Shown here one piece after another: positions 8,144-31,675 of a DNA stretch of 64,000 bases. This stretch comes from Branchiostoma floridae (Eukaryota; Chordata; Leptocardii; Amphioxiformes; Branchiostomatidae), in NCBI RefSeq assembly GCF_000003815.2, contig NC_049985.1, positions 7,874,066-7,938,065 on the forward strand. Reading direction: 5' to 3'. Made by a program: the position numbers and the translations under genes. The notes beneath the pieces were generated by a model. That model was not told the origin of the DNA, made no database searches, and saw only the letters and a list, made by a program, of their open reading frames with translations. Positions within the stretch are counted from its first letter, which is position 1. Each line of letters starts with the position of its first letter.

Positions 8144-8151
8144 CTATATAC
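8144..8151 (+). promoter_or_regulatory. TATA-like box for first exon A
   Basis: CTATATAC lies 107 bases before the ATG at 8258. A start site about 30 bases downstream would give a 5' leader near 80 bases. Support is motif and position only. Confidence 0.35.
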
Positions 8152-8257: not shown

Positions 8258-9552
8258 ATGGAGGCCGCTGAGATGAGTGAAAAACCGCTAGTTCCGGAGA
8301 GTGCCACAGGAGAGGAAGACGTCAAGGAGAAGTTTGAGACAGAGGAGAATGCTGAGGTCAGTCCGGAGGAGAAAATGAGGGGAGAGATAGAAGCACTCTT
8401 GGAGAAAACAACCGGAAACATAGAGAAACTCGAAGAGGAGAAACAAAAGAGAGGCATCAAGGAAGAAGGGAGTGAAGGGGAGAAGAAACCGTTGATGAGT
8501 GAAGAGGGGGAGAAGGGCGCCGAGGAGGAGACATGGGCGACTCTGAAGGAGAAGGAAACCGAGGAGCCTCCGACGTCTCCCGAAGTACTTCCCGAAAACA
8601 TGACGATGGAAATTTCGGAACTCCACGATCCCGACGGCTCACCAGTGGAGAAGGAAAGTCCCTCTTTCTTATGGCAGTCGGAAGATCAGCTGTGGGAGGA
8701 GGTTCCCCCTGTGGAAGGAACTGAGGACAAGGACAAAGAAAAACCTGGAGACAAGAAGAAAGATAAGAAAAAGACGAAGGAGGAGAAAGAGAAAGAAAAG
8801 GAGAAGAAGAAAAAGGAGAAGGAAGAGAAGATGAAAGAAAAGAAGGAAAAAGATGAGAAGGCAAAGCAAGAAAAGAAGGAGAGAGATGAAAAGGCGAAGA
8901 AAGAAAAGAAGGAAAAAGATGAAAAAGCAAAGAAAGAGAAGAAGGAAAAAGACGACAAGGCAAAGAAGGAAAAGAAGGAAAAAGAGGAGAAAGCTAAGAA
9001 AGAAAAGAAGGAGAAAGATGAAAAAGCCAAGAAAGAAAAGAAAGAAAAGGACGAGAAGACTGCTAAAGAAAAGAAGGAAAAAGACGACAAGGCCGCAAAA
9101 GAGAAGAAGGAACGGGATGAAAAGATTGCTATAGAAAAGAAACAAAAAGATGAACAGGCTGCTAAAGTTAAGAAAGAAAAGGATGAAAAGGCTGCCAAGG
9201 AAAAGAAAGAAAAGGACGAGAAGGCCGCGAAAGCTAAGAAGGAAAAAGAAGAGAAGCTGAAGCAAGAGAAAGAGGAGGAAGAAGCTGAGAAGCAGGAACA
9301 GGCAGAAGTGAAGACAAAACCAGAGGATGAGGAGAAAGAAAAGTTGGTGCCAGAAGAAAAGGAAGTTGCCACGGATCCAGATGCGATTGAAATTCTCGCA
9401 GAGGAAGGTTTGATATCGCCTGAGAGGAGAAAGCCTGACGGAATTTGGGAGGAGAATAAGAAGATCATCATCCTCGGTATCGTGGCGTTCGTGTTGGTGG
9501 TCATCATAGTCATCGCAGTGGTGGTGCCACTCACAACGAGAACAGCTTACAG
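8258..9552 (+). CDS. Alternative first exon A: lysine/glutamate-rich cytoplasmic tail plus transmembrane helix
   Basis: The ATG at 8258 opens a 432-codon exon that ends at TACAG|gtgagg in phase 2. Residues 1-165 are acidic with few hydrophobics. Residues 201-332 are twelve tandem 11-residue repeats with consensus KAKKEKKEKDE, then KAAKEKKEKDE. Residues 375-400 form a short linker (ILAEEGLISPERR). Residues about 402-423 are a hydrophobic membrane helix (ILGIVAFVLVVIIVIAVVV), followed by PLTTRTAYR. The charged repeat should form a long single alpha helix or hendecad coil. With basic residues before the helix it looks like a type II anchor. In-frame readthrough stops at TGA 9554, so splicing is needed; the first phase-compatible coding acceptor seen downstream is at 21299. 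Reverse-strand frames over this exon are shadows of the purine-rich repeat. Confidence 0.8.
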
Positions 9553-12500
9553 GTGAGGCTGGCTTCACTTCACTCACAGGCAAAATGTAACTTTGTAGCA
9601 GTTAAGACTATGAGTAATCCTTTATGAAAAGGCGAATGGGGTGACAGTATACAGGTAAGTAGACAGGTAGGGGAGGGAGATCATTTTGCTACCTTTAGCA
9701 TGCAAAATGCAAAATTCGGATAAGAATCTAACAAGGCTGTCCACAATTGAGGTCACAACTAAGCTACAGGCATTTTGTTTGTTTGCTTGTTTGATGTCTA
9801 GTCTGTATTGCTCCTTATTGCATGTAGTATCTGTACCTGGACTACTCTGACCCGCCCTCTTTGACTTGTCGGTTGAAGAGAATGTTTGACTTCACACATA
9901 GAGTTACTGATTGTAGCAAAATCATTTAATGCACCACGAAAGGTTGCGCGTGTAAAATGTAATTTCAGAAGCTCGCTCCACTCTCATACAAGTTGTTCCT
10001 CCTTGAAATGAGGTCTGAAGGTAGGATGCATAGGATGTATACGAAGCAAGATTGACGAATTTACAACGCTGCAAACATTACAACTACTTCAGAAATAATG
10101 CATTACATGTACTCTGGGAACAGAAGACATAATCTGCTCGCTCGTGGTGTCACGAAACTGTGCCACGTACATTATAGTAACTGTGGTATTTACGTCACCC
10201 ACGTAATCCTCGTCAAAGATTAACGTTTTTCTTTCAAAGCGTGTTCTGTCAATGAGTAACTCGGCAAACTATTTCATGGTAATAGCACCTCCTGGCGAGT
10301 ACCATACGCCATTGCAGCTGATTCATTCTCTGTAACTCGTCCCATGTGAAGAAGCGGGGTCAGTTTGCCCCTCCCTCCACTGAAGGGGTAACAGAAGGGG
10401 TGCATGACGAACTTATGCCGAAAGTGCTGGCTGACATTTCTGGCTTTGTCCCTGTCCGCGTTTACGGTCGTCCTGAAGTTGAAGGCTGACGCGAATTTCA
10501 AACGGTTTCCCTTTTTACCTCCCGCCCCCTTACGGAAAGTCAGGTGAGTTCACCAACTCTGTCTGCCAAGATTTCCTTTGTAATGTCATCATAACAGCAG
10601 TAAATCTAAAGGGTAGACTGCTGTAGTAATTAATAAAAGTACTGCCGTCCTCAATGCATTCAAAACTTTGTAACTTGCACTTTCCACTACCGTAGTTAAA
10701 TGTAGTAGTTTTTACCGTCCCTCCCCCTCCATTGTGAGTACCGTAGTCTGCCCTGGTTCAGTCATGTGTTTTCACATGTGTTGACAGTCAGAGTGTCTGA
10801 AGCGTGCAAAGGTCAGCTTTTCAACCGCAAACAGCAGATGCTGTGCAAGACACGTAGCCTCCAGCACAGGCCTTTGAACAACTTATTGATTGGCAGCTTT
10901 TGTCATTGTGTTTTGTCGATTTCTTCTGGAGTTTTCTTTTTTGCTGCTCCGAACTGTTGATGTTTGCCAAGGCGCTTAAAGCTATGTGTTTGGAAGACAT
11001 TTTTGGGTCTCTTTTGTAGTTTTTAGAGCGCGTCATGTGTTGGGTCTGCGGGTAGTTTTTTTAGGGGTGCTTTTAGAAGTTAAAAAAAAAGAGTTTTTCT
11101 CTTTTCTAAGAGTCTTTTTTCTACCTTAAACTGTTGATGTTTACTAAGGCTGTTTCAGAATCGTGGAATATGATACCTTTGAACAATACAGTGTACGGAC
11201 TTTAGACAGAACGGAGTTAGAAACGGTGGAAAGCAAATAAACCAGCCTGCAAATAAGCTATGGGTGGCAAAATACAATGTGATAAGTCAACATCGTAAAA
11301 CATGTGAAATATTTACAATGTGGCCAGGCTACAAAGTACCTTAATGCAACGCTTGGTTGTTTTAAAATCACAAATCGGACTGGTGATTAGATATAGCATA
11401 GGCTATCCAAAGACTGGCACTAACGTCTATGTCCATTTAAAGGTGTATTACAAAGGAGCGTAGCGTATTATGGTGCCTCTGATATTTGCACATTCAACAA
11501 AACAATCGAGATACTCACTAACGATGAAGTGTGCGTATCTACAGTCCAACGTGCCGTTGTAGTTCAGAGAGACTACGCTAGAGTTTGCGCATATATATTT
11601 GGTATGCTCTACTTTTGTTTATCTATTTTGTGATTTTCTAATGCACTAATTTTTTCATTCTAGAATAATTCATTGCCTGTCCCTAATCAATGTGCGACCT
11701 TAGTGTGTGTGTGTTGGGGGGGGGGGGGTAAGGGGCGTGGTCAAAACGCTTCAATTCGTCAAAAATCGGTACCGACAAAGAGCAGCGATATAAGGAAAGG
11801 TCTAATAACACTTCATAAAGGTTCATCAGGGACGAACCATGGGGGAGGGGGGGGGGGGCGTTTGATTTTTGATATTCAATATTTCAGTCATGTCTCAAGG
11901 ATCTAGTTCATTGGAAAGACATCCGTCTCAAGTCAGGTGAGAATTTCAGTTGGGAGGTTGTGTAGTGGGAGTAGCACAGGTGTTGTAGAGGACCTTTTGC
12001 ATGACCCAGTAAACTGACCCAAGTCACGTGATGTCAAACAATAAAACTTGCTGGTTGGTTGGTTGGTTGGCTATTTGGTTGTTTTGGTTGGCTAGTTGTT
12101 TGGTTGTTTTGGTTGGTTGGTTATTTTTCAACCAGGAATGGACGCCTGTCCCGGTTTGGCGTAATCTGTCTAAATTTCCAGAACCGAGCATCCAATGTTG
12201 AAGGAATGGGACAAATCAGAAAATGATTAGGTGGCCATCAGTGAAACAGGGTATTATCAGTCGAAGTCCGGCAGTACTAAAAGTCCATCAACTGTCATAC
12301 TGTTTTCGGTCCGGTACGGTGTATGATATGTCCACAACCACCTGCCGTTTGGAACACCATATTTGGAACACAAGTATGCTCCCAAAGAGGGCGTGACCAA
12401 AATCAGGTGGTTGCTTCGGTGCGACACAACTATAAATCACCTTGTGAAAACTTGTACCAAGGTCCAGTTTAAGAAGTTGTGTTGCGAGGGAAAGACCTGG

Positions 12501-15500
12501 CAAATATAAAATGGCGGGCAAACATGACACGGGAGCCGACTCGACTACAGAGGCGGGCCAGCATGCGACGAGTTTCCAGACGAAGACATGCACAAGAAAT
12601 GTCCTTCTCGTGGCCGCTGTGGCGTTGGTGGTCGGAGTGGTCATGATCACGGTACCTGCTGTCTTGCTGACGAGGGAGGAAAGTCAGGAGGATTCTCGGT
12701 ACGTTCTTAAACATGGGCCAATCTCATACCTGGTCTAACTTTAATTTGAGGACTGTAAATAAACAGTCTAACAACTACCTCAACGGAGTTTGAAGCCTCG
12801 CATGTGCCCTTCACTACTCGAAAGGACACGTAAAGCATTCGTAAAGCATACGTAAAAAACTTTCATTAGAAAAGTCAACTTGTGTGCATGCTGTAAGTCA
12901 TGGTCCAAGATTTGGGTCTTTGAAGCGCCAATTCTTTCTAAAATCGTGAAGCTGCTGCAGCATCCATTCGCGTAGATATGAACATGCAACCCATATCTTT
13001 CTAACGCCCAGTAACTGATATCTTATAGGGGAACTTTATTGCACGACATGGTGCAATGTATAGTATTAGATCTCGGAATTTGGCGATGTTCTGTGCCGCA
13101 TATGACAGATGCGTCTCTGACATTTACTGCTCTTCTAAATGCATTTATCGGATATAGCCTGCCAAGATTAGACTGTGAGCCAACAGTGGGGTGAGCCTAC
13201 GGTCCTTCAGGGGGTAGTAAACCACGTATGACCTCTGTTCAAGTGCCATGAAAGTTATGATGAATCATAGGATTATGTGGCGAATGCTGACCTGAAGGCA
13301 GAGTTAGGGCAACTCCGTTATAGCTATACTGTTGGGTGTCAATCATGTGAACTCTTCCTCAAAGTGGAAAAAGTACTAGCCAGGCTTACGGCACACTCTT
13401 TGTTTACCCTTGCTCTTATCCCACTCCATCCATCACAAGCTGATACTAGCAGTCCGTCAGACTGTTTTCGAGGACACGAAGAGGATTCTAAAGCCCCACT
13501 TGTAGCTGTGTGAGATATACCGATGTGTAAAGGTATATCTGCATTTGCGCCACTGCGGGGGTGCGGGGTTCGAAAGATACTCAAAGAATTTCAGAGATAA
13601 AGAACGAATTTACTTATTTTTTGTGTACTTTGTCGTCTTCTAAGTCATACTTTTACGTATTACGCATGCAATATCTAATTATACAAAATTGGGGAAAATA
13701 ACACGACAGTGACACAGTGAACGAACCCCGCAGTGACGCAAGCTTGACGCAAGTGCAATGAGAGTGCACCTAAAGCATGACAGATCTCTGACAGGGTGGC
13801 GCGGCGTGCTATCTTAGCCAGACGTCATGGCCTCATCATGAGAGATTATAAATAGATAAAGTGGGACTCGAATGATTGATTTTACAGGAGTTGCTCGCGT
13901 CACTTCATGAAAGCGATTGTTATAGGGTGAAAGAGAGGATGATCAGAGGCTCTCCATCTGCGTAGATGTGACGGTGATATCATCCGTCTCTCTAATCCTG
14001 CCCATGCTTCATCTGTCGACCAGACAAACCCTCTTCTATCCAGGCATCGCCTTAAATCCATGGACGCCCATAGCGCTGACAGGACTAACATAACCGGCGT
14101 ACACCAACAAGGGCGATAGAAGCAAGTTGTCAAGCTTGTAGATCCCCGTTGTAGCCGCAGCTCCATCCCTATCTCGTCTTGCATTATCCCATGGCCCAGT
14201 ACAGCAACAGAAATTATCTGATGGCACAATATCCGCTAAGTAACCTATTTCTAACGCAAACAAGGAAGGTTGTTAGGGTAGCCTGTTGACTGTGTATATC
14301 CTGGATCTGATTTGTAACATTTTCTATGTCCCAAAGACGCCACTATATAAGCAGAGTTTCAAATACCATGTCATGATACCGAAATCAAAATCACCTTGTT
14401 TAGACAACCAACCAACCACATAGCAATCAACTATGCACACTTCGTCGCTGGTAGTACGTGTAATAAGAATTATGAAAAACTGGAGTATAGGCCTGCCAAC
14501 AAAATAAATGTCGTGGTCCCTGCCAACTTTGTAGGAATAGTCTTTCGTCATATGTTTGCAAGTTATCAATAAAAACGTTACTCATCACATGTACAAACGC
14601 AATAAAGTACATTTCATATCCCCATTGGGACCTAAATGAGTATCCTAGAGCTGGGTATGAGTCTACCGTTACAAAAGAGCACTTCGACGGGCAAACAAGT
14701 CTTCAATGGATTTTATGACTCCTGTGTTGAACATATGGCTCTGGTGGTGACAGAAAAGCAATAACAGTCGGGTAGCCGCGAGTGGGACGTCAGGGAAAGC
14801 ACTCACCCCCTGTCAAAAGGGTTTCTTGTCGCACAGAGCATCCCTAGGCCTGTTGGTGGCTGCAGAAGAAGATCTTGAAGGATTCCTTCGACAAGAAGAC
14901 GTCCTTAGGGGGAGTATTTCAGCAGGAGAAACTATATATTACATTACTGGTATATGAAGCGGAAAATGCGCTAGATCACAATCAGACATCTCCCTGTCCT
15001 CAGAGGCGACCCAGGGGATTGAAGAAAGCCGGACCGCTTGTCATGTATCTTCGTCAAGTTGGAATAGGTCGCGTCCTTCCGTAATTGCCCTTCGAGCGTC
15101 CTCCTTGGCGAGACTTAAACCGCAAGGAGGTGTATCGATCCCGCTCCCTGCTGCATATTGAGAGGCGCACTCCCCGTACGACGGGCGGGATCCGGACACA
15201 ACACTTTCAAACGACAGGTGGGACGCCACAAAGCGCACTACCATACGCGGCCGGGGTGGGAAGCCGCACTTTCATACGGCGTGCGCGACGGAACACTTAC
15301 GCAGCCTACACCAGGCCTTCCTACAGGAGTAGGGGTCGTAGATCGGCAAAACAATTCGGGAAATTGGTCGCGCTAAGGTTAATGTTTCCCCTCCGGAGAT
15401 CAGAGGCAGGCCAATTCCTCTGGTAGCAAAACTCCCCTGGCAAATTATTCTCCCTATAACAGTCAGCGTAGTCAGTCTGGTAGAGACTAACACTTACGAA

Positions 15501-18500
15501 AGGCAGGCGGTACCTTACCAGGCACTCCACTGGAACAGGAGTCCGGACTATGGCCGGTGGTAGTGGCCGCGACTCGGACACGTTCGTCATCAAGATTCCC
15601 GAGGAAGAGCGGCTGACGGGCACGGGTGAGGACGCGGCGGAGGAGAGAGGGTCTCCGCTGGGGAGGAAGCTGCGAGAGTACCGACTGCTGGCCGGCGTGG
15701 TGGCGTTCTTGGTGCTGGTGGACGTCATTTCTATCTCCGTACCGATTGTGATCAACACGAGGTGGGAAAGGTGAGGCAATCTGGAACCGAGTAGTTTTGG
15801 GTCAAGAAGGTTTTTGTGCGCATTGTACCTTTTGCGCCGGTATAAGTGCCCTTCATGGTAACACACCTGTCACACCGACTGACTTAACGGGTGTCACACA
15901 CCTTGGTTCTGCATGTCTGATGAACCCTTCTAAGCGCTTTTGAATTCTCAAACAACTCGATTTGAGATTGATGATATGGAAAGTGTAGACTTTTGGTTGT
16001 TTCTGGTTCTCCTCTCTGAGCTGTAACGTTACGTACAAGGTCCTTTGCCAATTTGCACAGCAACCACTCACCGTGTTACATAGTTTAAACAGGGTTTTCC
16101 ATCCATTCAAGGTTGTTTCGTAATGGTTTCACGGAAGGGGAAGGAACGTACTACCAACTCTCATAGTTCAATTTTCTTTCTATCTTTCTTTTCTTTGTCT
16201 ACTTCAAGTTCAAACTCCAGCGTACTGCACATTCCCTTCCCCTACCAGGACTTGGCGAGATGTGCATTATCAAAGTCCACTCTAAAATGCTGGATATGCC
16301 ATTACGGCATGTTTGCGAAGGATATGTATCCATGCATGTGCCTTTGAACGGGTCATTACAATACATTAACACCACCAGAATGGCACTTAGCGCGGCGGTT
16401 TTGTGAGCTAGGCCATTACATTTTCGTTCTCCCGCCATATCGGTGTAGCTCCTAATGATAATCTCATCTTACTTCACCAAGCCATCAGGACAGAGGGTCC
16501 ACATTCGCACGACCTTGAGAGGTAAACCATGTAGCCGCCTTCATGCACACGTCGATTTTAATGCATTTATCAATGTGAAGCTTGAATTGCGCTTCTTTTT
16601 CTTGCCTATTACGACTCCGATATTTGAACCGTGGTCAGCACTTCCAGTTTTAATCGATTTTCAGATGTGAAGTACCAAGTAATGTGTTTAAAGTCTAAGT
16701 CACAAATAAACACATTGAGCCTGTTGAATTTATTGGATTTTGATTTACTTTTTTTACATTTGATAAGTTACACGCTGTGTGTGGCAGCATAACAATTACT
16801 TGGGTCTAAAAGCATTGGCTGTACTTTATACACCAACGAAATAAACGTCCTCTTCGATTACATGCAACATATGTTCCCTAATTTCCGCTGTCTAAATAGT
16901 GCGGAAAAAATTCATATTCCTTATGCAACTAGAAAAATGACGTATTGTTGATTACATCTGCCCATATGTTTACAACTGTCTTAAGAAGCGAGAAGAAGTC
17001 AAACCTGTACATACTAGCATGTAGCCGTCTCTATAGATAGTGGCATATGGTATACCACTTCTTATATCAAATTATGCCTTTCGCTACGACCTGTACTTAG
17101 CTTGTTTTAGCATAAACGTACAATAATGGTCATTCGTTCATTCATTCATTCATTCATTCATTGTTCAATTTCTAGTCACTTGTTTTCAATTCAAAAGAAG
17201 ACGCCTATTTGTGCATGGTTCAATACCCCTCCGGTTATTGAACTTAACCTTGTCTTGATTAATCTTGCCATTTTTCAAAAGTCCTGATCGATGCTCGGCC
17301 CTCCCACAGAGATATTAGGAGCCAGCGACGATGGATCATGAATCATCCGTTGAGAACAACACATATGCTGTATGTGTGCCTTTGCCTGCGTCTGCGCCGT
17401 ACAGCCTGTACAACCGCCCTTAACTTTGACACAACACACCAGCTTCTGTGCATCTGTATAACCGCCCTTCGGCGTAACACACCAGCTTCGCATGCACTCG
17501 GCGCAGTAGCAGGCAGGTGGTTATATGTAACACTGAACAACCACACCCAACCTCTGCACATCTAGCTGCAAGTGTAACGAGTTCCACTGTATGATATGTC
17601 TCGGGGAAAAAACGATCCTGGTGCTCTTCTACTATAAGTTCAATCGATTCGCTATTTATCCTAACCCTGGTCGTTATTTCCATTATAGTATACTAGCATG
17701 GCCGATGAAATACAACCCAAGGCAGACTCAATGGGTTCAGGCTACATAAACTTTGAAATGGTTTTGAAAGTAAGGATGTCTTTTTATCCAATCTTTTCCC
17801 TCTCTGCATTTGGCATTAGTAGCGCTTACTGAAGCAAACCTAGTTACGGAAGTCGATTCCCGGATTCTCTCCCTGTAGGCGAATCTAATTATGTTTGGAT
17901 TATTTAATCGTACTTGAGGTAGCAGGTGTTTCCGAGATGTCTCGGCACTGGGAGCAGGTAGATCTTAATGTTTCAGTTCTATTAAATGTCCGAAAGGTAC
18001 GAAGTCACTGACCAGGTTACAAATGTAGATTCATCTGGGCCAATCTAAGAGCCATTTCACATTCAAGCTGTGCCCCCTTAATGTCTTCTTGAAATGAATT
18101 CTTTTAACCTAATCAGGTTTTTAATTAATTGCGTTGACGTAGCGCACGTCCCGCTAAATGTTCCACAAATAGCTAGACCCAGGAATCCTTTGGCCTCTAT
18201 CCGGCTTCACAGGACGCTGGGAAAATAGTAGAAATTGGCCAAAAAGATAGATACTAATAGATAACACGCCAGAGGAGTTAGCTGGCCGGGGAGTGCAGTT
18301 TTTGACCTCCTATTTTTCCAGTGACCTGTGCAGTCTGGTAGAGGCCAAGAATCTTTGGTGCAAATCATTACAGTTTGGTCGCTAGCAAACTAAGCTGGCT
18401 ACAAGGAGAATGATAATTTTACCAGGGGAGTTTGGCCAAAGAGTATCATTTGTCACGCAGTTCCAAGAGGAAATGTTATCATTCCTTATAATCATTCGTT

Positions 18501-21500
18501 CGATTCACAACCCTTCAGGACGTCCTTGTGGAGGCTAAAAATAATGATTCCATTACTCGGAGCCCTGGTGGTTTAGGATGGTGTTAGGATCTAGGAAGAT
18601 ACTAATTTGTCTTCTTTTGTAGTTTGACTTCTTACGCGTATGATGTGGTCCACTGTTGTTCACGGTACAAGGAGGAAAGACACCAAGTTGTTAGGGGTTG
18701 GTTGCCGCCTACACAGCAGGTTGCCGCCAGTACATGATGATGAATGGTAGAAACTACTAGACACACTTACAATGGTACCCATCCACCGGCATTTGATTTG
18801 CGATCTATTTCGAGCGCCACACGCTTACGTAGACAGACTGTCGGTACACACGGAAATTAGAACACATGGATATGAGTCTACGATGGAGGCACTCTTCAAA
18901 TATTCGTCTTTGGAGAAGAAATTGAGGAAACATTTATTGTATTGGAATTATTTGTCATGTGCATCGTGCGTATCATTAGGTAAACTTTTTTTTGTAGAAA
19001 ATCATTGTGGAAAATGGAGTCACGCACCTGGATCAATGATTCTTACTTTTCTTTACTCTGTGGTATTCTTTACGTATATTTGCTCTTGATGAAGGCAGAA
19101 AGCATAGAAGTTGATTTTAGACATGTGCTCACTTTATGGGAACGACTGGTATATGGCAATTTAATATACGAAGCGCAGCTCCGATGCGTGACCCAATGTT
19201 GCTTTTGTCTTCGATTGGCGTGAAGCTCAACTAAGCCGTAAAAGTTCTACTACCAACCGTCATACTTCATAACTTTCATCCTAGGGATCGGGGGCACATT
19301 CGTAGGATTTTCCTTATACCCCCTGTCACATTATCCACGATCTTCAGGCGTATCGATGGAAGATCGGCCATATTTAAGATCGACAGAGGGTTGTGCGTAT
19401 TTTTCACCTGAAAACCGTCCCTGTCACATATAAGCCATACTCTGTACCGTGTACAATTGTTGTGCAATAAAGTTATTATAAGCGAGGCTCGGGTGATTGC
19501 CGCAGAATCATCGTCCGAGCGATTTTCGCCAAATTAGCAGATGTAAGATTCTATATCACACATTTTACAGCTTACAAGTTGCAAACTGGTAAGTACCGAT
19601 AAGACGCGCAACTTACACGTCGCCCATAGTACTTGGCCATACGTTGTCAGAATACCAGAGCCCTTATCAGTAGCAACCACCCGACGTATTTTTCACACAG
19701 GATGTCTTTTTGTGCCAGCTAGTCGGCGCGGACAAATTTGAGAGAACCTGGCCCATATGTTGGAAAACCATGCACGAATCAGCGCTCCCCCAATAAACGT
19801 CAGTGATCCTAGAAGGTTCCGAAGGAGGCCAGTTCCGAAGTGCATCGCCTAAATCGAACAGCATCAGTGGTAAAATCAGATGAGAAGGTTTGAGTGCGTT
19901 ACCGATAAAACTGTCTGTCAAATTTGGCCCACTCTGATGCGTGGTAGGAAAGACGCCACATACTTTATTGGAGATAATAACATGAGCGTTATGTACAGAT
20001 AGAATAAGATGTCTCACGTCATGGCAAAATGTCTGTAACCCAATTGCACATGTCAACAATCTTTTCATTAAGCACTCATCGGGAACGTTGATAAAGTTAC
20101 CCGGTACGTGCGGCGTTTAACGTTTTACTGTGCCATGCGGATCTATATGGCGAGTTTGGATTAATCGAACCTCGAAGTTGTCTTCGATTCATTTCTATCG
20201 ACATTGCAGGTGGCATCCACTTGAGCAAAGCCTCTAATGACGCCCCACGGGCAAACTAACTTCCCACCAAACTAGAGAGCCGATTCAGAACCTTTTGAAA
20301 TCAACAAGATCGTTGTCATTCCAGGTGATATATTGACAGACAGGACTTGAGATAAGTCACAAGAATCGATAGACGGGCTACCTTATCTCCGGGGAGATAT
20401 TGGAAGATAAGACCGTGTTTGTTTCTGACTTCCCTGGACGACGCCTGGGAGGTACACCGGCCGGGACACAGGCGTGGGGAGCGTTCATTTTAGTTTATTA
20501 CTTCAACAAATCAAACAGCATTTCAGCTTCAGGAGATGCAAGACAGATGATAAAATCAATAGCTTACTCACACACCGATTAATCAACACTTACCCAGTGC
20601 TACGTTTTCAAAGGTCGCAGTCCCTGAAGCAGAGTGCGGAATGATAATGTGAACTCTTTGGTCCTCAGGCAATGAAGAAAGCGTATGTACAAAAATGGAG
20701 GACAACGTGAGCCAATATAAAAGTGTATAAAAAAGTACATGATGCGTCGTGGATAAAATGAAAAGAGGAAGGAAAGCTTACATCAAATTGAATGTAAAAT
20801 GTCTGATATTTTTGCCTTAGCCAATGATCCCAAACTAGGCACCAACTCGCTGTAATTGCAGTGCTGAACGACCGCTGGGGGACATTTGAGCGGTAGCGTG
20901 ATACTGTAACTATTGCTCATGCACTGTACACAAGGGTATAAAGTCAATGACCCAGGCATACCCGGAAGTTAGTTTCCCTATCGACTATTCCATAATGGAC
21001 GGGTGCCAAATGTTTGTTACCAGTTACACTACAGTATCTATTGCTTTGACAATTGAATAAAACATGCAACTGAAATAAATGGTTAGACTCTAGGATCAAG
21101 GACGTTCTTGCTGGTATTGAAGGAAAACAGTTGGCTGAGATAGGAGCATTAGATGTTGACAAACTGTGTCACTCACCCCCAACTAACGAATGGTACATCC
21201 CTCAGCTGCTGAGAATGGAGTTTGACAAGTTTCCCACCCCAATAATCATACGAATGAAAAGTTTGAGTATAGATTTCTGTTCTTTCTGTGCCCTTCAGGA
21301 TGGAGCCGTACCTGAACTTCAGCATCAGCACCACATGGAACAGCACGCCGATCGCACAACCCCTCAACTTCTCCCTGGAGGCAGGGGAGAGGCCTGGGAC
21401 CACCCCCACTGACCCACCCATACCCGGACTCACGGTAGGTACTACCCCCCCCTGACCCACCCATACCCGGACTCACGGTAGGTACCACCCCCACTGACCC

Positions 21501-24500
21501 ACCCTTACCTGAATGTACACCCTCACTGAGCCACCCATACCCGGACTCACGGTACGTACCACCCCCACTGAGCCACCCATACCCGGACTCACGGTACGTA
21601 CTGCCCCCACTGACCCACCCATACCCGGACTCACAGTAAGTACCACCCCCACTGACCCACCCATACCTGGACTCACGGTATGTACATGTACATTCCCACT
21701 GACCCACTCCATAGTTAACAGGTGGTTGACTACTATGTTGTTCACACCTTTCCAAGCACTTGGTAGATGGGCAAGGATCTTGGATCTTCACATATTTCCT
21801 CTATGGAAAATTGTAACACTTCCAGGGAATGGCTTATTTTAATGGCTTCATTACTCACAGGATGTCAGGTGAGGTGACCAATATTCAATGGATGACAGAA
21901 ATGCATATGAGTTATGTTAGTCTTTCTNNNNNNNNNNNNNNNNNNNNNNNNNNNNNNNNNNNNNNNNNNNNNNNNNNNNNNNNNNNNNNNNNNNNNNNNN
22001 NNNNNNNNNNNNNNNNNNNNNNNNNNNTTGAATCTGCATTATAGCATAGGCAAAACTGATGGACTCTATACAGATGATAACTTGCCTCATCGCATATAAT
22101 GTTAGAACTACTGTGTAGGGAAACAAGGAGATGGAGCAATGGTGTGAGGCTTGGAAATGTAACGTGTCATCTTCTTCTCCACATGCTGTAGGTTAACATG
22201 GATCTACCGTTCTTCGGAGTGGACCCAGCGCCAGCCGGACCTGCGGGACAACCTACTGACCAACTGTGGGACTATGAAGGTAGACCCTATCTCATATAGC
22301 GCCAGTTCACCCTTATCCGAGGGTAACCTATATCCGTATAGGGTATTTAGGGATATCAAGCCGATGGACAGTGGTTTCAAACTGCAATATTCGAAAATAC
22401 TGCAATTAGAAACCACTGTCCTTCAAAATCATATCAGTCAATACCCTGTTTAAAAAAACAACGGATATAGGTTACCCACGGATAAAGGTGAATTAGCGTT
22501 AAGTGTTCACTGAGAACTCTGTAGGAACTGGTCCATCCTCCTAGAGTAACCATCCTCCGACATAACCCACCAGCAAGGTTACAGATAATTTGGAAACACT
22601 CTTATCTACAGAGCCAGCTTCTCTGACCTCATTCAATACCCTGCATGCCTGCTGACTGAGGTCATCCCAGTTATCTCTGGACAGCTAGATTTGCTGAGTC
22701 CTATTCCATTTAGGCATTTATCTCAGGAGTGACTCAGTTTATGAAACATACTGGAATAATGGCTGGCACCTAGGCATATAATGAGACACCTTTTATTCCA
22801 AAACCATTCTACAATTTGCACTGATTGGCCCTTAATATCAGTTTATTATGTCATGCCACAAGTATTTGATAAAAGTGGCTTGCAGCTAAAGGAGAGTTGA
22901 AAGCAGCCATGGAAGATAATTAACATCCCCTGTACTTAAAATTTTGTAAGAATATTAAGTGAATTTGAAATCATTTTCTCTGACAGTGTTCGAGATTTTC
23001 TTTCTTGGACCAGAAGACCGGTACCTAGAAGTGGAATTTGGGCCGTAAGTATGGATTGCTTTGTGATACAAACATGTTCAAAATCAATGATTGGATCTTA
23101 CAGACAAAAATCCCCAAACATCATCATAGAAATTATCATAACTTGACTTAAACTATTTCAATTTAAACTAATTTAACAGCAATTTTGCAACAGCGTCTAT
23201 AATACCCTCCATTGTCATCGTATATGGAGAATCCTAATAAATAAATAGATAAATGATTTGCATCTTTATCCAGCACAATTATTCAGTGTTCAACACCAGA
23301 TGCTTTTGATGGATCATTTTAGGGTTATAAGTGGTCAAGGACTTCTTATGCCATAAGGCTAAACACATGTAATAAATCACTGCCATCTCAGTATCGACCA
23401 GTCACATACCATTACTCTTTTCAGATTGATTTACACATTTCTCATGATAGCTAGATGTTTTCATTTGATATTGACCATGTACAGTTATAAGGACCATTTT
23501 TGACTTAATTGTTCTTGGCTTGTCAAAAATACATGACCATAATATCACCACCACTGGCCGTTACGGTGAAAACGTCCTATAATGGGTGAATGGTAGTGAA
23601 AGTACGGTTAAAGTCGGTACTCTGATTGTTCTGAGTCAAAGTCACCCCTTTTATGTTTACTCTGCAAGGGGTTAATTTTGAGCAATTATCACATATTTTG
23701 AGTAGATTATGCAAGGATGGGGTGAAATGCCAAGTGTTTACTTTGCACCAGAACACAATAGAAAATTCACCGTGTTTCACCCCGCTGAAATTAACACCTC
23801 CGGTGAAAGGTGTCATCGTACGGGCGCACGCAACTCCATAGACAAAGAAACATACCATCGGTAGCTCGCCGCCATCTAGCCGGTGCTGGGAGTGTAGAAC
23901 GCCCGCCCAGTTCATCAGCACAAGCTGGGGAAATTTTACCGCTGTTGGTTGATATTAGACCCTATCCTCACTATTAAAAAAATCAATCGAAAACCGTGGT
24001 GACATCGTGGGGAGTTTTGCTACCAGAGTGTTTCTTTTCCCGAAAAATGACGGTAAAACCAGCATGGCATGCATACAACGTCCTTGGGCATACCATACCA
24101 TGAGATTCACCTAACGTTAGCTTCCCATACTGCGTTCGGAAAACACCATGATTTTGAGCAACTTTGGATCATAGTTTGTTTATCATATAAATAAAGAAAA
24201 TGGAAAACTGGTGCAAAATATCAGTCTACACGAAGGAGGTAANNNNNNNNNNNNNNNNNNNNNNNNNNNNNNNNNNNNNNNNNNNNNNNNNNNNNNNNNN
24301 NNNNNNNNNNNNNNNNNNNNNNNNNNNNNNNNNNNNNNNNNNCGGCCCGAATCATCCATGCAGGAAAATCTTCCATAATTCATAGTTTTCAGCATTAGGA
24401 AATATATTCTACGTCTTTTTTAGATCCTCTGAGTAAGTTTTGTTGTTGTTGTTGTCGGGAGCCGTAATTTTCCGTGGCCGTATCTTGACATTCCCAGCTT

Positions 24501-27500
24501 AAATTCTCCCATAAATGCGGATATAAATGCATGCTTTCTCGAAAGACTATTGTAATTGTGTATTTCTCTACGAGAATATTGCAATGTAATTGTGGAATAT
24601 AGCGTTTTTGTGCGTAGAAATGTAACATTTTTCATACAAAGAAATTTTGTTTGACGCGCGGGTGGGCGCAAGGCATCATGGGGCAGCAAAGAAAGAATTC
24701 TGCAGCTCGACCAATCAGAGCGCAGATCATAGTGGGGAACCCCCTACAGCCGTAGGATCAACCAATCAGAGGTGCGTATTCCGGTCACGTGCACGTATTG
24801 CACGCTTGCAGACGCTGAGCGGGCGTCATGGCGGCCGAAGTCGATTTAGCGCCGTATTTGACTGGGAAAACGCCCGGACACGATGTTTTATCATGTTTTA
24901 AAATGTGTTTTATAAGTTTATTAGACGCGCTTAGATGTCTGAGTTCTCGATACAAAAGAGGGTTAGTCTCCTTGTCAGATACAAGTCCTGTCATGGCGCT
25001 CTCGATTTCAGAATGAAAAATTAATTACTTGCAACAAGGAGGTGCTTGCAAGCATGCGGCAAATCAAACTTTGGGTCCGACCCAGAAATATGTGACTCGG
25101 TCGCAAGCGTAAAAAAATCCTGGAACTAGGCGGGCAGTCTTCAGTCCCAGTGCCGTTACAGATAGCGCCGAGCTGTAACCGTTGAAGTTTGCCCGGCGTG
25201 CGGAGGGAGCGTAAAAAATCCCCGGCTTGCGCTGAGGAACTGGGCGGGCAGTCTTCTGTCCCAGTGCCGTAGACTAGACAGCGCCGGGCACGTCGCTAGC
25301 GCTCGTGAAACAACGCACACAATAACGTAATTGCTGTTTGTTTTACTAGGGGTGAAACCTTCATTTCACCATGTTTTACTCTTTTGTCACGTAGGTGCAA
25401 GATTCGCTTTCACCCCTCCATATTTACATGGGAACAATGCGAATCCGGGTGACACATTTTCACCGTAGTTCACCGTGTTTCACCAACATTCACCCATTAT
25501 AGGACGTTTTCACCGTAACGGCCAGTGGTGGTGATACTGCAGCTGTACCATTTGTAAAAGCGACACAAAATTGACCATGCCAAATGGGACTGTCCCTTTT
25601 GGTGTAATGGTTTAGTGTGTTGGGACTGTTTATACTTGCTTGTTACATTGTTTCCCAATGCTGCAGCTGTGTTTAAAGGAAAGCTATAGGGGCTGCAGAA
25701 ATTACACTTAAGTTTTATGCGGTAGAAACCATTAGAGACCTATTGATTCTCAGAAGTAAATCAATGATGTACCACATATTGGGACATAGAATTTCATAGC
25801 GTCAATTTTACCAGATACATGTTGTCAACAATGTGACACTGCAGTCTGAAATACGACGACCATTCTGTGCAGACTATTGTACATTAATGTCACATTGATT
25901 GGTTGTTTTCAATCTCCACAGATATGGACATCATCTGGTCCTCCGTTTGCAGGGATACAGGAATTTGGTGGAGGTAAGTTAGAAGTTTCATGTAAAACTG
26001 AATTGTATGCAGATGTACGCAACTTCATACCTCTACATCTGACAATGTTGCTTCCCAAATTCACAAACTTTAAGGCAACATATTTTCCTCAATCATCTTT
26101 ATCTTGGTGACATTGAAATTGGTTTATACTTGAGCCAGTGGGGCACTCAGGCAGTATTGATACCCAAACTTCCTTCACACTACAGGTATCTGGCACTAAT
26201 ATTGCTCAAGGCAAATATCGGCTCATGATCTTATTGTGTTCTTGTACCAAAGAACACAGTAAGGCTGATACTTTCTGAGCAACTGTGTGTGATACAATTG
26301 GACCAGAAAGATTCGGCCCTTTACCATCTTGGCCCAGTTAACTCAGCTCAACACCCTGGTCAACTCAGGGTTATAAGGGTTAGAGGTAAGGTGTTGGGCC
26401 AAGTTTGTCTGATTGCACACATGTGTAGAGGGTTAAAGCAACCAACATACAGTCAATTAATCTTGTTTGGAAATGTAACGAGACATCACACTTTTTCAGG
26501 AAAAACTCCCCTTGCAATACACAGCCAGGAGAACAGGCAGCCGCTGGACAGGACAGGCCTTCATCCCATGGGACTACATCCCACCAAACCTGGGCTGGAT
26601 GAACGCTTACGGGATACACAACACGTCTGACAGCGAGCGCCGGTACCTGGCCTTGTATCCCATCCCTGCGGACAACACAGCAGCAGCTGGACAGCCAGAC
26701 TTGTAAGTTTGTTTGTTTGTTTGTTTATTTTTATTTAACCAGAGTTTCATGTCGCCTGGCTGGCATTTTTTAAAGATCCTTTTGAGGGAAACCCTGTGCA
26801 TACAAGCAACATAACAATAATCGATAACAATATCAAATGAAATAAATGGTAATACAGCAAGAATCAACAAATATTGATGCAAGTTAACTAAATACAAAAT
26901 AAGGCAAATCAATTGTACAACGTTAATTCTAATATAACTGAAAATCATGCTTAAAAGCTACGCATTTTTTCTTAGCATGAAACTTCTGCATGACAGAATC
27001 TTTATTGAACATGAGAGCTACATAAGAGAATAGATTCACCAACTTTATCACGACTTTATCACCAACCAAAGACCTCTACATGTGGTTGTAGGTGTTCAGC
27101 ACCAGGGACAGTACCAACTACTGTTGTGTTGTGTTGAAAAGTAGTTGATGTTTTCCCATTCATTCTCTAAGAATTACCCATATCTAGCTTGTAGGACTCA
27201 GAGGCCATAGAGTGTAAAGAGTCTGACTCAAAAACTCCACCATCCATAGTGTTGAAACCTCAATATCTTTTAGTCAGTACTCCATAACCATTAGATGAAG
27301 TGAACTGTGCTCCATGGAAAGTGGGTGAAAGCAGAACATGTTCAATGACTGTCTGAAAAGTATCTCTAAAAGACCTCCAACATTGAACCTGACTCTGCCT
27401 AAAAGCACCCTTAGTGGTGTAGTCTGACGGGGACACTTGTACAGCTGAGAGAGATGGAAATGAAGCATGCACTTGTCGACCCCGGGGCTTTTAGTGCCTT

Positions 27501-28283
27501 GACTGAGTGCTGCATCTATTCAAGAAGTCTGTATAATGCAAACTCTGCAATCTGGGGCTTCAATTGGCCCCTCCTTGCAAAGTCAGGCTACAGTGATTTT
27601 CATGTTAAAACTATAACATTAGCCATAGCCCTGATAAGGATAGGACTCATCAAGCTGTTTCTGTGGCCATCAAAACAGGCACATCTTTTAATCCTGAATT
27701 GGCTATCCTCAAAAGATTCTCTACAAGTTTTTTTTAGCGCTATCTTGCCTTTATTTTGCAAATACTAAGCTGTAGTTTCAATATGTGAAAATGTATGTAA
27801 TATTAGTACCAATGAATGTTAGTACCAATCTGTTGAATCCTACAGATTTCTGGTAAACAATGGTCATTTATTTACAAACAAGGTACATTGTATTTACAAC
27901 AGCATTATCAGTGTCACCTTACTCAGGACAATACTGACCAGTTCTATTTACACTGCTGCTAGGTGTCACAGTCCCAAAATATAAAGTATTGTCATATGTA
28001 CAGATTAACATAAATATATGTATTTATTTTTTTCTCCTTTTCTTCTTGTTTTTCCAGTCACAGACTTGGATTCTTCAAACCCCTGAATGCCAGTGTGCTG
28101 TACCCTGCGGGCTGGAAGCAACCACTGCCACAGAGGTGGGGATCAAACAGAGTACCAGCACCTCTCCAGGAAACACCTGTCCAAGACACACCTGTTCAAG
28201 ACACACCTGTTCAAGACACACCTGTTCAAGACACACCTGTCCAAGAGACACCTACCCAACTCACACCTGTGGATGAAACATGA
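8258..28283 (+). CDS. UPF0462 (C4orf33-type) protein, gene-level model with three alternative membrane-anchor first exons
   Basis: Common exons are 21299-21434, 22192-22279, 22987-23044, 25922-25973, 26500-26702 and 28058-28283, with matching phases throughout. From the ATG at 21300 they give 253 residues. Family resemblance to human C4orf33 is clear: MEPYLNFSISTTWNS, DLPFF (49-53), LWDYEVFEIFFLG (70-82), YLEVEFGPYGHHLVL (87-101), GQAFIPWDYIPPN (129-141), YLALYPIP (160-167) and a terminal FFKPL...GWKQP block. The WD.E.vEiFF / YLEvE..P.G pattern also recalls CBM9-like beta-sandwich domains (inference). Three upstream exons, all ending in phase 2, join in frame to the G at 21299 and give predicted products of 685, 316 and 327 residues. 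The biochemical function of UPF0462 is unknown to me. The common domain is secure; the fusions are inferred from phase, order and absence of other acceptors. Confidence 0.75.
9553..12429. other. Intron between first exons A and B
   Basis: No supported exon. It contains G-runs (about 11717-11728 and 11844-11858) and a TTGG/TTTGG simple repeat near 12050-12125. A CpG-richer patch at 10140-10560 has an open minus-strand frame of 75 codons with no splice or family support. Confidence 0.5.
12430..12438 (+). promoter_or_regulatory. TATA box for first exon B
   Basis: CTATAAATC lies about 80 bases before the ATG at 12511, which predicts a leader near 50 bases. It is the best core-promoter match among the three first exons and supports independent transcription of exon B. 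Confidence 0.5.
12511..12698 (+). CDS. Alternative first exon B: short tail plus transmembrane helix
   Basis: The ATG at 12511 opens 62 codons plus two bases and ends at TTCTCG|gtacgt (phase 2). Residues 1-29 are polar, threonine-rich and end CTRN. Residues about 30-52 are a membrane helix (VLLVAAVALVVGVVMITVP), followed by AVLLTREESQEDSR. There is no signal-peptide cleavage site, so a type II anchor is likely. The VP....TR motif after the helix matches exons A and C. Splicing to 21299 would complete CGG (Arg) and continue MEPYLNFS, a 316-residue product. Confidence 0.7.
12699..15549. other. Intron between first exons B and C
   Basis: No supported exon. Open frames on both strands at 13900-14260 and 15041-15426 lack family resemblance and acceptable splice borders. 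The stretch 15060-15550 is CpG-richer and is probably the promoter of exon C; a weak CTATAAC lies at 15454-15460. Confidence 0.45.
15550..15770 (+). CDS. Alternative first exon C: acidic tail plus transmembrane helix
   Basis: The ATG at 15550 (GGACTATGG context) opens 73 codons plus two bases and ends at GGGAAAG|gtgagg (phase 2). Residues 1-40 are acidic (IKIPEEERLTGTGEDAAEE). A basic stretch, GRKLREYR, precedes the helix at about 47-67 (LLAGVVAFLVLVDVISISVP), then IVINTRWER. Positive charge on the N-terminal side predicts a type II anchor. The helix and VP...TR tail resemble exons A and B, so the three are probably duplicated exons. Splicing to 21299 would give a 327-residue product. Confidence 0.7.
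15771..21298. other. Intron between first exon C and the first common exon
   Basis: No further anchor-type exon is evident. A (TTCA)n microsatellite lies at about 17132-17163. The longest open frame (minus strand, 19667-20068, 133 codons) has no recognisable family or splice borders and is left uncalled. Confidence 0.5.
21299..21434 (+). CDS. UPF0462 common exon 1
   Basis: The acceptor is CCCTTCAG|G. The first G completes an arginine codon from any of the three anchor exons, and the next three bases are the family's own ATG (21300), so a cytosolic form starting here is also possible. It encodes the N-terminal strand (MEPYLNFSISTTWNSTP), with sequons at N6, N14 and N23, then a proline-rich extension (TTPTDPPIPGLT). 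It ends ACG|gtaggt in phase 0. Confidence 0.8.
21399..21690 (+). repeat. 42-bp minisatellite carrying repeated splice donors
   Basis: The unit spans the proline-rich end of common exon 1 and its donor (CCCGGACTCACG|gtaggt). About seven copies follow, one degenerate. Donor-like GT positions are 21435, 21478, 21552, 21594, 21636 and 21678, with variants gtaggt, gtacgt, gtaagt and gtatgt. The last four are exactly 42 bases apart (14 codons). The second unit has one extra C, which puts a TGA in frame at 21453, so only the first donor gives an open transcript here. Confidence 0.85.
21928..22027. other. Assembly gap, 100 N
   Basis: Exactly 100 Ns, the conventional placeholder for a gap of unknown size, in the intron after common exon 1. 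Missing sequence here could hide an exon. Confidence 0.99.
22192..22279 (+). CDS. UPF0462 common exon 2
   Basis: The acceptor is GCTGTAG|GTTAAC, phase 0; the exon ends GAAG|gtagac, phase 1. It encodes VNMDLPFFGVDPAPAG and then DQLWDYE, the family block that in C4orf33 reads with a similar D..APFF and LWDYE. Confidence 0.85.
22298..22500. mobile_element. Fold-back MITE of about 200 bp
   Basis: The left arm (CACCCTTATCC, GGGTAACCTATATCCG) is repeated inversely at the right end (CGGATATAGGTTACCC, GGATAAAGGTGAATTAGCG). The centre is also palindromic, with GGACAGTGGTTTC facing GAAACCACTGTCC. It sits just downstream of common exon 2. Confidence 0.75.
22987..23044 (+). CDS. UPF0462 common exon 3
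   Basis: The acceptor is CTGACAG|TG; the exon starts in phase 1 and ends CC|gtaagt in phase 2. It encodes VFEIFFLGPEDRYLEVEFGP, the most conserved strand pair of the family. Confidence 0.85.
23545..25534. mobile_element. About 2-kb inverted-repeat element with TA target duplication
   Basis: A near-perfect inverted repeat of about 47 bp bounds it: TCACCACCACTGGCCGTTAC at 23545 and its inverse ending 25534, both continuing GGTGAAAACGTCC and TATAATGGGTGAATG. TA flanks both ends (23543-23544 and 25535-25536). GGTGAAA and TTCACC motifs recur inside both ends. The CpG-rich interior holds two CCAATCAGA boxes (about 24710 and 24760), an ATGGCGGCCG start at 24828 with 62 open codons, a directly repeated block near 25115-25280, and a 100-N gap. 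No transposase is visible. It lies in the intron between common exons 3 and 4. Confidence 0.75.
24243..24342. other. Assembly gap, 100 N
   Basis: Exactly 100 Ns inside the 2-kb inverted-repeat element; true size unknown. Confidence 0.99.
25922..25973 (+). CDS. UPF0462 common exon 4
   Basis: The acceptor is TCTCCACAG|A and the exon ends GTGGAG|gtaagt in phase 0. It encodes YGHHLVLRLQGYRNLVE, corresponding to the family's PHGQHLVL-type strand. Confidence 0.85.
26500..26702 (+). CDS. UPF0462 common exon 5
   Basis: The acceptor is CTTTTTCAG|GAA and the exon ends GACTT|gtaagt in phase 2. It encodes EKLPLQYTARRTGSRWTG, QAFIPWDYIPPNLGWMNAYG, a sequon in HNTSD (N152) and RRYLALYPIP. The W.G.A..PW.Y.P core is diagnostic of the family. 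Confidence 0.85.
26703..28057. other. Intron between common exons 5 and 6
   Basis: No exon seen. It begins with a (GTTT)n run at the donor (26703-26727) and is otherwise AT-rich unique sequence. Confidence 0.5.
28058..28283 (+). CDS. UPF0462 common exon 6 (last), with repeat tail
   Basis: The acceptor is TTTTTCCAG|T. It encodes the conserved terminal block HRLGFFKPLNASVLYPAGWK (sequon N189), then an added tail of about five pentapeptide repeats (consensus PVQDT) ending TPVDET and TGA at 28281. The tail comes from a 15-bp tandem repeat at about 28176-28255 and is absent from the vertebrate protein as I know it. Confidence 0.85.
28176..28255 (+). repeat. 15-bp coding tandem repeat
   Basis: Units of ACACCTGTTCAAG / ACACCTGTCCAAG type repeat about five times in frame, encoding PVQDT pentapeptides. 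Unit length is a multiple of three, so copy-number change preserves the frame. Confidence 0.85.
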
Positions 28284-29755: not shown

Positions 29756-30553
29756 ACATGTCCCTGGTGCTGAACACCATCCACATACAGGTTAACATAC
29801 CCGTCCCTGGTGCTGAACACAATCCACAAACAGGTTAACATACCTGTCCCTGGTACTGAACACCATCCATACATTGCTGAACACCATTCACACTTTGGCT
29901 AACATACCTTACCCTGGTGCTGAACACAGTCCACATATTGCCTAACAGGCATGTCCCTGGTGCTGAACAGCATCCACACACAGGTTAACATACCTGTCCC
30001 TGGTGCTGAACACCATCTGCACAGGCTAACAGACCTGTTCCTGGCACTGAACACACTCCACACATTGGCTAACATACCTGTCCCCGGTGCTGAACACCAT
30101 CTGCACAGGCTAACAGATCTGTCCCTTGTGCTGAACACCATCCACACACAGGTTAACATATCTGTCCCTGGTGCTGAACAGCATCCATACACAGGTTAAC
30201 ATACCTGTCCCTGGTACTGAACACCATCCATACATTGCTGAGCACCATTCATAGTTTGGCTAACATACCTGTTCCTGGTGCTGAACACAGTCCACATATT
30301 GCCCAACAGACATGTCCCTGGTGCTGAACAACATCCACACACAGGTTAACTTTTAACATACCTGTCCCTGGTACTGAACACCATCCACACATGGGTAAAC
30401 ATACCTGTCTCTGGTGCTCAACACAGTCCACATATTGCCTAACAGACCTGTCCCTGGTGCTGAACAACATCCGCACACAGGTAAACATACCTGTCCCTGG
30501 TACTGAACAACATCCACACGCTGGTAAACACGCCTGTCCCTGATGCTGAACAC
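29756..30553. repeat. 42-bp minisatellite, about 20 copies
   Basis: The unit contains CTGTCCCTGGTGCTGAACAC and CATCCACACACAGGTTAACA with variants. Most spacings between successive CTGAACAC motifs are 41-43 bases, with two shortened and one lengthened unit. Open frames on both strands reflect unit length and are not genes. It separates the UPF0462 gene from the next promoter. Confidence 0.9.
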
Positions 30554-31028
30554 TAAACACTATCCAGGCATAGGCCAATATGGGACCGCCTTCGCTTGCT
30601 GGCAGGTCCACGAGAATAGGAATTCATAGTGCACATGTGAAACGTCCTCTATCACGCTACCAATTTTGCCTGTGATCAGCAGATGTTGCCTTTTGGATCT
30701 GCATTCTATTTATTCCATACTAACGGTCCTGAAGAAGATACCTTTCCATGATGCAGTACCAAACACGGGGCATCAAACTTTGCCCAAACGCTGTAGCCAA
30801 AACAAAAGTATCATTATGACGATATAACCGCGACAACAAAGACACGTCTTACCATCATACGTCGACACCAGGGTCATCTAAGGTCATCATGTCTAAACAA
30901 TCGTAGCTTTGGTAAACGTTCTTTGACAATTGTTTACACAAAAGAAGATAAACTGGACATAATCACTTTGGACTCCGTTCTGTTTATGCACATTAAGTAG
31001 ATCAAACTATCCGTACGCAACTAACACC

Positions 31029-31675
31029 ATGTTCAAGAAGTTGATCGGCGCTGATCCCGAGTTAGCCTGGAAACTTGCCGGATCTATGATGGTCTCGGAG
31101 CTCCTCGGCGATCACGTGGTCACGGTGCCCACTCTGGAAAACGCGCACTGCTTCGGACCGGCCACAGTCCTGGTCAAGGCTCCCCAGACCTTCACAGATA
31201 AAGCCACCCACCGCCATGGCTCCTTCCACGCCGTTGGCAGACTGTATGACCTGTGCGTCTGCCTACCACAATGTATCAAGTTTGGCCTGGTGCCACAGAC
31301 GGACACAATCTGGAAGAAACCTAAGCCCGGAAAGACGCTCTCAGTCGGCCACAGATCTCTAAGGCAGCCGCTTATTGAGAAGAAAAAGATACACATGGAG
31401 GTTCGAGACGTGGTGAAGAAGACAATTTTCTTGGACTTGAAGGAGAAGGTTCAGTTAAGAGACGACAATGAGGAGATCAGCACGGCGACATCTGTGTATA
31501 TCATCACAGAGGTGTTCTACGCGACAGGCCTGGACGTCCAGGTGACTGTGGACGGCAGAAAAGGCGCGTTTTCCACCGACACGGACATCCCCATCGCCTT
31601 CAGGTACCAGAAGTACAAGCTGGAAGATGACGGTGCAATAGGTGACGGGTTGGACAGCAATATTAAGAAAAACAG
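31029..31675 (+). CDS. Gasdermin-like gene exon 1
   Basis: The ATG at 31029 (ACACCATG context) opens 215 codons plus two bases, ending AAAAACAG|gtgata. It is CpG-rich compared with flanking sequence and holds the whole gasdermin-like region. Confidence 0.7.

What the first reader, a model, noticed from the sequence alone, without database searches (positions are those of the whole stretch)
8258..21434. Three alternative membrane-anchor first exons feed one UPF0462 domain
Seen: three separate plus-strand exons (A, B, C) each start with ATG, encode a tail and one membrane helix, end at a consensus donor in phase 2, and cannot be translated usefully without splicing. The first phase-compatible coding acceptor downstream is the UPF0462 exon at 21299, whose first G completes an Arg codon and leads straight into the family's own ATG. 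Known: vertebrate C4orf33/UPF0462 is a small protein without a membrane anchor. Inference: alternative promoters produce three type II membrane forms with different cytoplasmic modules, plus possibly a cytosolic form. I know of no description of this architecture.
Basis: partly seen in the sequence, partly recalled or inferred. Interest (0 to 1): 0.85.

Follow-up and report, generated by a model that had tools for sequence, protein, structure and literature searches.

The report
Three membrane-anchor starts for one gene
In a lancelet-like animal genome, three membrane-anchor exons lie in a row just upstream of a single small gene and fit its reading frame, so the gene probably makes three membrane-bound versions of a protein thought to float free in vertebrate cells; RNA evidence is still missing.

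Summary
Exons A (8258-9552), B (12511-12698) and C (15550-15770) start with ATG, encode a tail plus one hydrophobic helix, and end in phase 2 with two bases of an Arg codon. A two-strand scan of the window finds these and no others of phase 2; 20 control stretches give one in 341,160 strand-bases. The helix ends of C resemble those of A and of B beyond composition; A-B fails. Of 14 acceptors scoring 5 or more from C to 21299, only 21299 opens a long coding-like frame. It begins a six-exon, apparently single-copy UPF0462/C4orf33-type gene. New evidence: this domain has 5 N-glycosylation sequons against 0.88 expected, and no cysteine, as expected outside the cytosol, yet its own first exon shows no signal peptide by eye. 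I think A, B and C are alternative first exons giving three type II membrane forms (about 0.7). Splicing is not shown. Two points were overstated: A and C can be read without splicing (one Arg, then stop), and B's donor is weak. It works like vertebrate GCNT2 and DPP6/DPP10.

The parts
8258..9552 (+). Alternative first coding exon A: 431 codons, acidic/KEKE-rich tail, one helix (IIILGIVAFVLVVIIVIAV), then VVPLTTRTAY + AG; donor CAG|GTGAGG
   Evidence: the end of A has one match in the genome
8833..9292 (+). 33-bp coding tandem repeat in exon A (13.8 copies; 11-residue K/E/D-rich unit)
8145..8150 (+). TATA-like box 113 nt before the ATG of exon A (weak evidence)
12431..12436 (+). TATA-like box 80 nt before the ATG of exon B (weak evidence)
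12511..12698 (+). Alternative first coding exon B: 62 codons, short tail, one helix, donor TCG|GTACGT
   Evidence: one match in the genome
15550..15770 (+). Alternative first coding exon C: 73 codons, tail, one helix, donor AAG|GTGAGG
   Evidence: one match in the genome
21299..21434 (+). First common exon of the UPF0462 gene; acceptor tgtgcccttcag|G; the G completes Arg, then ATG; carries 3 of the 5 sequons
22192..22279 (+). UPF0462 exon 2
22987..23044 (+). UPF0462 exon 3
25922..25973 (+). UPF0462 exon 4 (52 nt)
   Evidence: not among the four matches
26500..26702 (+). UPF0462 exon 5 (sequon NTS)
28058..28283 (+). UPF0462 last exon: rest of the domain (sequon NAS) and a Pro/Thr-rich TPVQD-repeat tail; stop TGA at 28281-28283

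Best explanation
This is one gene with three alternative first exons. Transcripts that begin at A, B or C are each spliced from a phase-2 donor to the same acceptor at 21299, joining as ...Arg-Met-Glu-Pro... Each first exon supplies a cytoplasmic tail and a signal-anchor helix, so the shared UPF0462 domain ends up outside the cytosol (ER/Golgi lumen or cell surface), N-glycosylated and followed by a Thr/Pro-rich tail. Choice of promoter selects the tail (a roughly 400-residue KEKE-rich one, or one of two short ones) and so where the same ectodomain is placed. Shown: exons, frames, phases, hydrophobic segments, a single genomic match, sequons. Inferred: the splices, the promoters, topology, glycosylation, and the role of the tails.
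For: Frame and phase fit for 3 of 3 exons. Such exons are rare: 3 in 13 kb here, 1 in 341,160 strand-bases of control. Helix ends of C are like those of A and B (shuffle P 0.0013 and 0.0007; in C's list both score above all 42 control hydrophobic segments). Of 14 acceptors scoring 5 or more from C to 21299, 21299 alone opens a long coding-like frame (51 codons, score 0.27). The DUF4663 neighbour, assumed cytosolic, has 0 sequons. The domain's own first exon shows no signal peptide by eye; no other phase-2 anchor exon on + was found in window 1-21298 or in the 60 kb upstream, and no short signal-type exon in 1-21298. The first sequon lies 17, 20 and 12 residues after the helix of A, B, C. Genome searches find the domain at one gene and B, C and the end of A once each.
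Against: No RNA. A-B helix similarity is not significant by shuffling (P 0.38); 1 of 42 controls equals the A-C score in A's list, and the motif pattern I wrote down matched B and C but not A, and 0 of 42 controls. B's donor is weak, and the first scan missed B. Charge does not favour N-inside for A (0 before, +1 after). No TATA-like box within 600 nt of C; three lie within 700 nt upstream of 21300 and may be a local promoter. The sequon test was devised after seeing the sequence, and the sulfatase-like neighbour (DUF229) shows no excess (5 against 4.4), so the count is a hint, not a classifier. The signal-exon scan was strict (2 hits in 128 strand-kb), so its silence is weak. ATG 21300 has A at -3 and G at +4 and could start a cytosolic form (sequence).
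Confidence: 0.7

Rival explanations
1. A, B and C belong to one or more separate membrane-protein transcripts that end before 21299: either unspliced (A and C stop one Arg after the donor, as tail-anchored proteins) or spliced to a small terminal exon such as 16249. UPF0462 is an unrelated neighbour.
For: Read-through gives R-stop in A and C, 13 aa and stop in B. 16249 is the highest-scoring of 318 acceptors from C to 21320, with an 11-codon open frame and AATAAA at 16705 and 16840. An AATAAA lies 22 nt after B's read-through stop (12736 to 12758).
Against: A stop after AG|GTGAG is automatic in phase 2, so it says little. AATAAA/ATTAAA occur 1.09 per kb here. It leaves the near-consensus donors of A and C, the shared phase and the sequons of UPF0462 unexplained. 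The 16249 frame scores as non-coding (-0.22).
Confidence: 0.13
2. UPF0462 is an ordinary cytosolic protein made from ATG 21300 behind a noncoding leader or a local promoter; the fit with A, B and C is coincidence of phase (1 in 3 if the three are duplicates).
For: Good ATG context (sequence); in-frame stop at 21270 and three TATA-like boxes at 20716-20937; vertebrate protein has no anchor (recalled).
Against: Strong acceptor directly before the ATG (third of 689 scored AGs), though a leader would also use it; 5 sequons and 0 Cys; no coding acceptor found for A, B and C to join instead.
Confidence: 0.1
3. Only one or two of the three exons (most likely C, the nearest, or A) join 21299; the remaining one, most likely B with its weak donor, is a relic.
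For: Donor score of B 1.8; weak A-B similarity.
Against: B is open and in frame by codon score and has a TATA-like box; two donors inside the UPF0462 gene score lower.
Confidence: 0.07

Closest known systems
GCNT2 (IGnT) variable-first-exon cluster, with UGT1 and Pcdh clusters (PMC1885805, abstract and passages read)
   Same: Tandem first exons (three in human, mouse, rat), each with a hydrophobic transmembrane segment near the N-terminus, each behind its own promoter and separately spliced to common exons.
   Different: GCNT2 variable exons are of about the same length and very similar to each other; here only the helix ends are alike and the tails are unrelated. The common part here is UPF0462, not part of a glycosyltransferase. 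Splicing and promoters are described there, inferred here. That paper calls the Ugt1, Gcnt2 and Ugt2a organisation vertebrate-specific.
DPP6/DPP10 N-terminal variants (PMC3973911, abstract and passages read)
   Same: Alternative first exons give different cytoplasmic N-termini to one type II membrane protein.
   Different: There the transmembrane segment is in the common exons; here each first exon brings its own.
UPF0462 / C4orf33 family
   Different: Five sequons, no Cys, an 11-residue insert, a Thr/Pro-rich repeat tail, and likely an N-terminal anchor.
A-beta-H-J-J (ASPH/junctin) locus (PMC2625362, search listing and start of abstract only)
   Same: One locus, several functionally distinct proteins by alternative splicing and promoters (membrane topology recalled).
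   Different: Different ectodomain; no sequence comparison was made.

Membership tests
UPF0462 (C4orf33) | Sequence similarity over the whole domain | tested here: met
No curated confirmation: no Pfam match to the domain itself (only a weak, below-cut-off Extensin_1 match to the repeat tail), none in NCBIfam, no PDB chain.
UPF0462 (C4orf33) | No membrane anchor (recalled, vertebrates) | tested here: inconclusive
   The anchor depends on unproven splices.
Multiple-variable-first-exon cluster (GCNT2/UGT1 type) | Tandem first exons that share donor phase and fit one common acceptor | tested here: met
Multiple-variable-first-exon cluster (GCNT2/UGT1 type) | Variable exons highly similar to each other | tested here: not met
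   Only the helix ends are alike, A-B not significantly; the tails differ in length (431, 62, 73 codons in all) and show no likeness by eye. So it works like such a cluster but is not filed as one of the classical kind.
Multiple-variable-first-exon cluster (GCNT2/UGT1 type) | Each variable exon has its own promoter | tested here: inconclusive
   TATA-like boxes before A and B, none within 600 nt of C
Multiple-variable-first-exon cluster (GCNT2/UGT1 type) | Each variable exon is spliced to the common exons in mRNA | not testable with these tools
   No RNA data held

The most novel reading that the evidence does not exclude
A protein family that is cytosolic in vertebrates was turned, in the amphioxus lineage, into a set of three glycosylated type II membrane proteins by acquiring a duplicated array of anchor exons with their own promoters, giving an invertebrate chordate a GCNT2-like variable-first-exon gene with a new kind of ectodomain.
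Probability: 0.5. Interest if true: 0.6.

Novelty: new variant of a known kind. Interest (0 to 1): 0.5.

Why it matters
That limits what it can do: it must work in an oxidising, glycosylating compartment without cysteines, which hints at ligand binding rather than cytosolic metabolism (inference). It would also be a variable-first-exon gene outside vertebrates, where the Ugt1, Gcnt2 and Ugt2a organisation has been called vertebrate-specific (PMC1885805).

Tried and rejected
Tried without result: Pfam, NCBIfam and PDB searches with the domain (the one Pfam line for the protein was a below-cut-off Extensin_1 match to the repeat tail); two scans of bacterial and archaeal genomes for relatives, 11 and 59 pattern matches, none confirmed; search of the own genome for paralogous anchor exons, nothing beyond each exon itself (counts there are lower bounds).

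Papers: 'C4orf33' or 'UPF0462' gave 50 papers, of which I saw the 20 listed and passages of three (PMC10142993, PMC8953622, PMC10253896). Branchiostoma with UPF0462 gave 1, the same octopus ink paper; C4orf33 with signal peptide none; amphioxus with alternative or variable first exon 3 and 1, listings only. None of what I saw describes this architecture; 30 of the 50 papers were not listed. A human CRISPR screen reports lower LDL uptake on loss of C4orf33 (-21%), with no lipid-trait association of its predicted expression (PMC8953622, passages); I draw nothing from it for topology.

Considered and rejected: that tandem donors in the 42-bp array at 21399-21685 extend exon 1 productively (six donor-like copies, but the frame stops just after the first). 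An earlier count gave the end of the last exon as 28284; counting codons gives 28283.

Full report
Setting. The window is G000:C7:7874066-7938065 of a genome of 513,431,437 bases in 431 contigs.

The common gene. Six plus-strand exons (21299-21434, 22192-22279, 22987-23044, 25922-25973, 26500-26702, 28058-28283) join in frame to a 253-residue protein counted from ATG 21300. The choice of 28058 as last acceptor gives ...GQPDFHRLGFF..., which recalls the peptide GQFDFPDFHR printed for the Saccoglossus UPF0462 homolog (PMC10142993, one passage). The genome search with this protein scored five candidates and returns four places, all of them exons of this gene, so it appears to be single copy. No Pfam or NCBIfam model and no PDB chain matches the domain.

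The three upstream exons. Codon usage trained on two other genes of the window favours the stated frame in each. A first scan with a strict donor threshold found A and C only. With the threshold lowered so as to admit B, the three are the only phase-2 'tail plus helix' exons on either strand of the window; in the other phases there is one phase-0 hit at 42871 and none in phase 1. At the same threshold simulated sequence gives 0.10 per 64-kb strand in phase 2, and 20 real stretches of the same genome give 5 hits in all phases, 1 of them in phase 2, in 341,160 strand-bases. Sixty kb upstream and 20 kb downstream of the window give 4 hits, none of phase 2 on the plus strand. I take the clustering to be real (Poisson P 9e-6, or 9e-4 with the upper bound of the rate; interval chosen after the fact).

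Relation between the exons. In the three-way alignment the helix ends share V, A, V, V, P, T and R columns. By BLOSUM62 with shuffles that keep helix and flanks apart, A-C gives P 0.0013, B-C 0.0007, A-B 0.38. Against 42 hydrophobic segments of ORFs in other fetched stretches, most of them not known to be genes, C scores higher with A and B than with any control; A-C is equalled by 1 of 42 in A's list, A-B is reached by 2 of 42 in A's list and 1 of 42 in B's. A pattern I wrote for the shared residues matched B and C, not A, and none of the controls. I read this as probable duplication with C as the link; the tails share nothing that I can see. No further copy was found elsewhere at the sensitivity.

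What they can join. Between C and 21299 there are no assembly gaps; the only N runs of the window are 21928-22027 and 24243-24342. Fourteen acceptors from C to 21299 score 5 or more. Only 21299 leads into a coding-like frame of any length (51 codons, score 0.27). The longest others (84, 74 and 36 codons) score -0.08, -0.24 and -0.10; those near zero (0.01) are 20 and 37 codons without a good donor; one four-codon frame scores 0.36. The strongest acceptor by my simple score is 16249, with an 11-codon frame; this is the basis of the main rival.

Why UPF0462 should lie outside the cytosol. The domain has sequons at 6, 14, 23, 152 and 189, five against 0.88 expected by shuffling (P 0.00075; for the full 253 residues 1.15 expected, P 0.003), and no cysteine. 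In the recalled human protein there is one sequon, at another place, and two cysteines in the compared 192 residues. The last exon adds a TPVQD-type repeat of the kind that is often O-glycosylated (general knowledge). The first common exon begins MEPYLNFS..., by eye no signal peptide, so it would need an upstream anchor. No signal-type short exon of phase 2 was found in 1-21298, with a strict scan. Against too much weight: the test was made after the fact; of the controls, exon A has 1 sequon (0.25 expected), B and C none, the DUF4663 ORF (218 residues used) none against 0.59, and the sulfatase-like DUF229 ORF (632 residues used), probably itself luminal or secreted, shows no excess (5 against 4.4) and has 10 Cys.

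Topology and promoters. The net charge of up to 15 residues before/after the helix is 0/+1 for A, +2/-2 for B, +3/0 for C, so B and C obey the positive-inside rule and A does not. The first sequon lies 17, 20 and 12 residues after the helix, enough or nearly so for transfer (limit recalled). TATA-like boxes lie 113 nt before A's ATG and 80 nt before B's; C has none within 600 nt; three lie at 20716-20937, upstream of 21299. TATAWA occurs 56 times on this strand of the window, so these are weak hints.

Comparison. GCNT2 in human, mouse and rat has three variable first exons, each behind its own promoter and spliced to common exons; each variable domain has a transmembrane segment (PMC1885805, passages). 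DPP6 and DPP10 vary the cytoplasmic N-terminus of a type II protein by first exons but keep the helix in the common part (PMC3973911, passages). The present gene works like the first, but its variable exons are not highly similar, so I do not file it as a classical member.

Verdict. Observation confirmed; interpretation partly supported and more likely than not. Shown: exons, frames, rarity, one genomic match each, sequons. Inferred: splicing, promoters, topology. Interest is moderate: the design is known, its use on a UPF0462 domain is not, as far as my partial searches reach.

Noticed in passing
21399-21685: A 42-bp tandem array (7 copies) that contains the 3' end of the first common exon and its donor, so six donor-like sites follow each other (21435, 21478, 21552, 21594, 21636, 21678); reading on stops in frame after the first. 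Possibly a variable splice site between individuals.
   Followed up: partly
30963-31679 (+): ORF matching Pfam DUF4663 (E 2.2e-18); its start reminded me of gasdermin N-termini (from memory, untested).
   Followed up: no
56891-58909 (+): Long ORF with a DUF229 match (E 1.1e-38) and a weaker, below-cut-off Sulfatase match.
   Followed up: no
42871-43056 (+): Another tail-plus-helix first-exon-like ORF, phase 0, donor score 4.3; perhaps the anchor exon of a downstream type II enzyme.
   Followed up: no
28159-28270 (+): 15-bp coding repeat (7.5 copies) giving a TPVQD tail at the C-terminus of the UPF0462 protein.
   Followed up: partly
29760-30553: Large minisatellite region with a basic period of 43 and several longer periods up to 243.
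   Followed up: no
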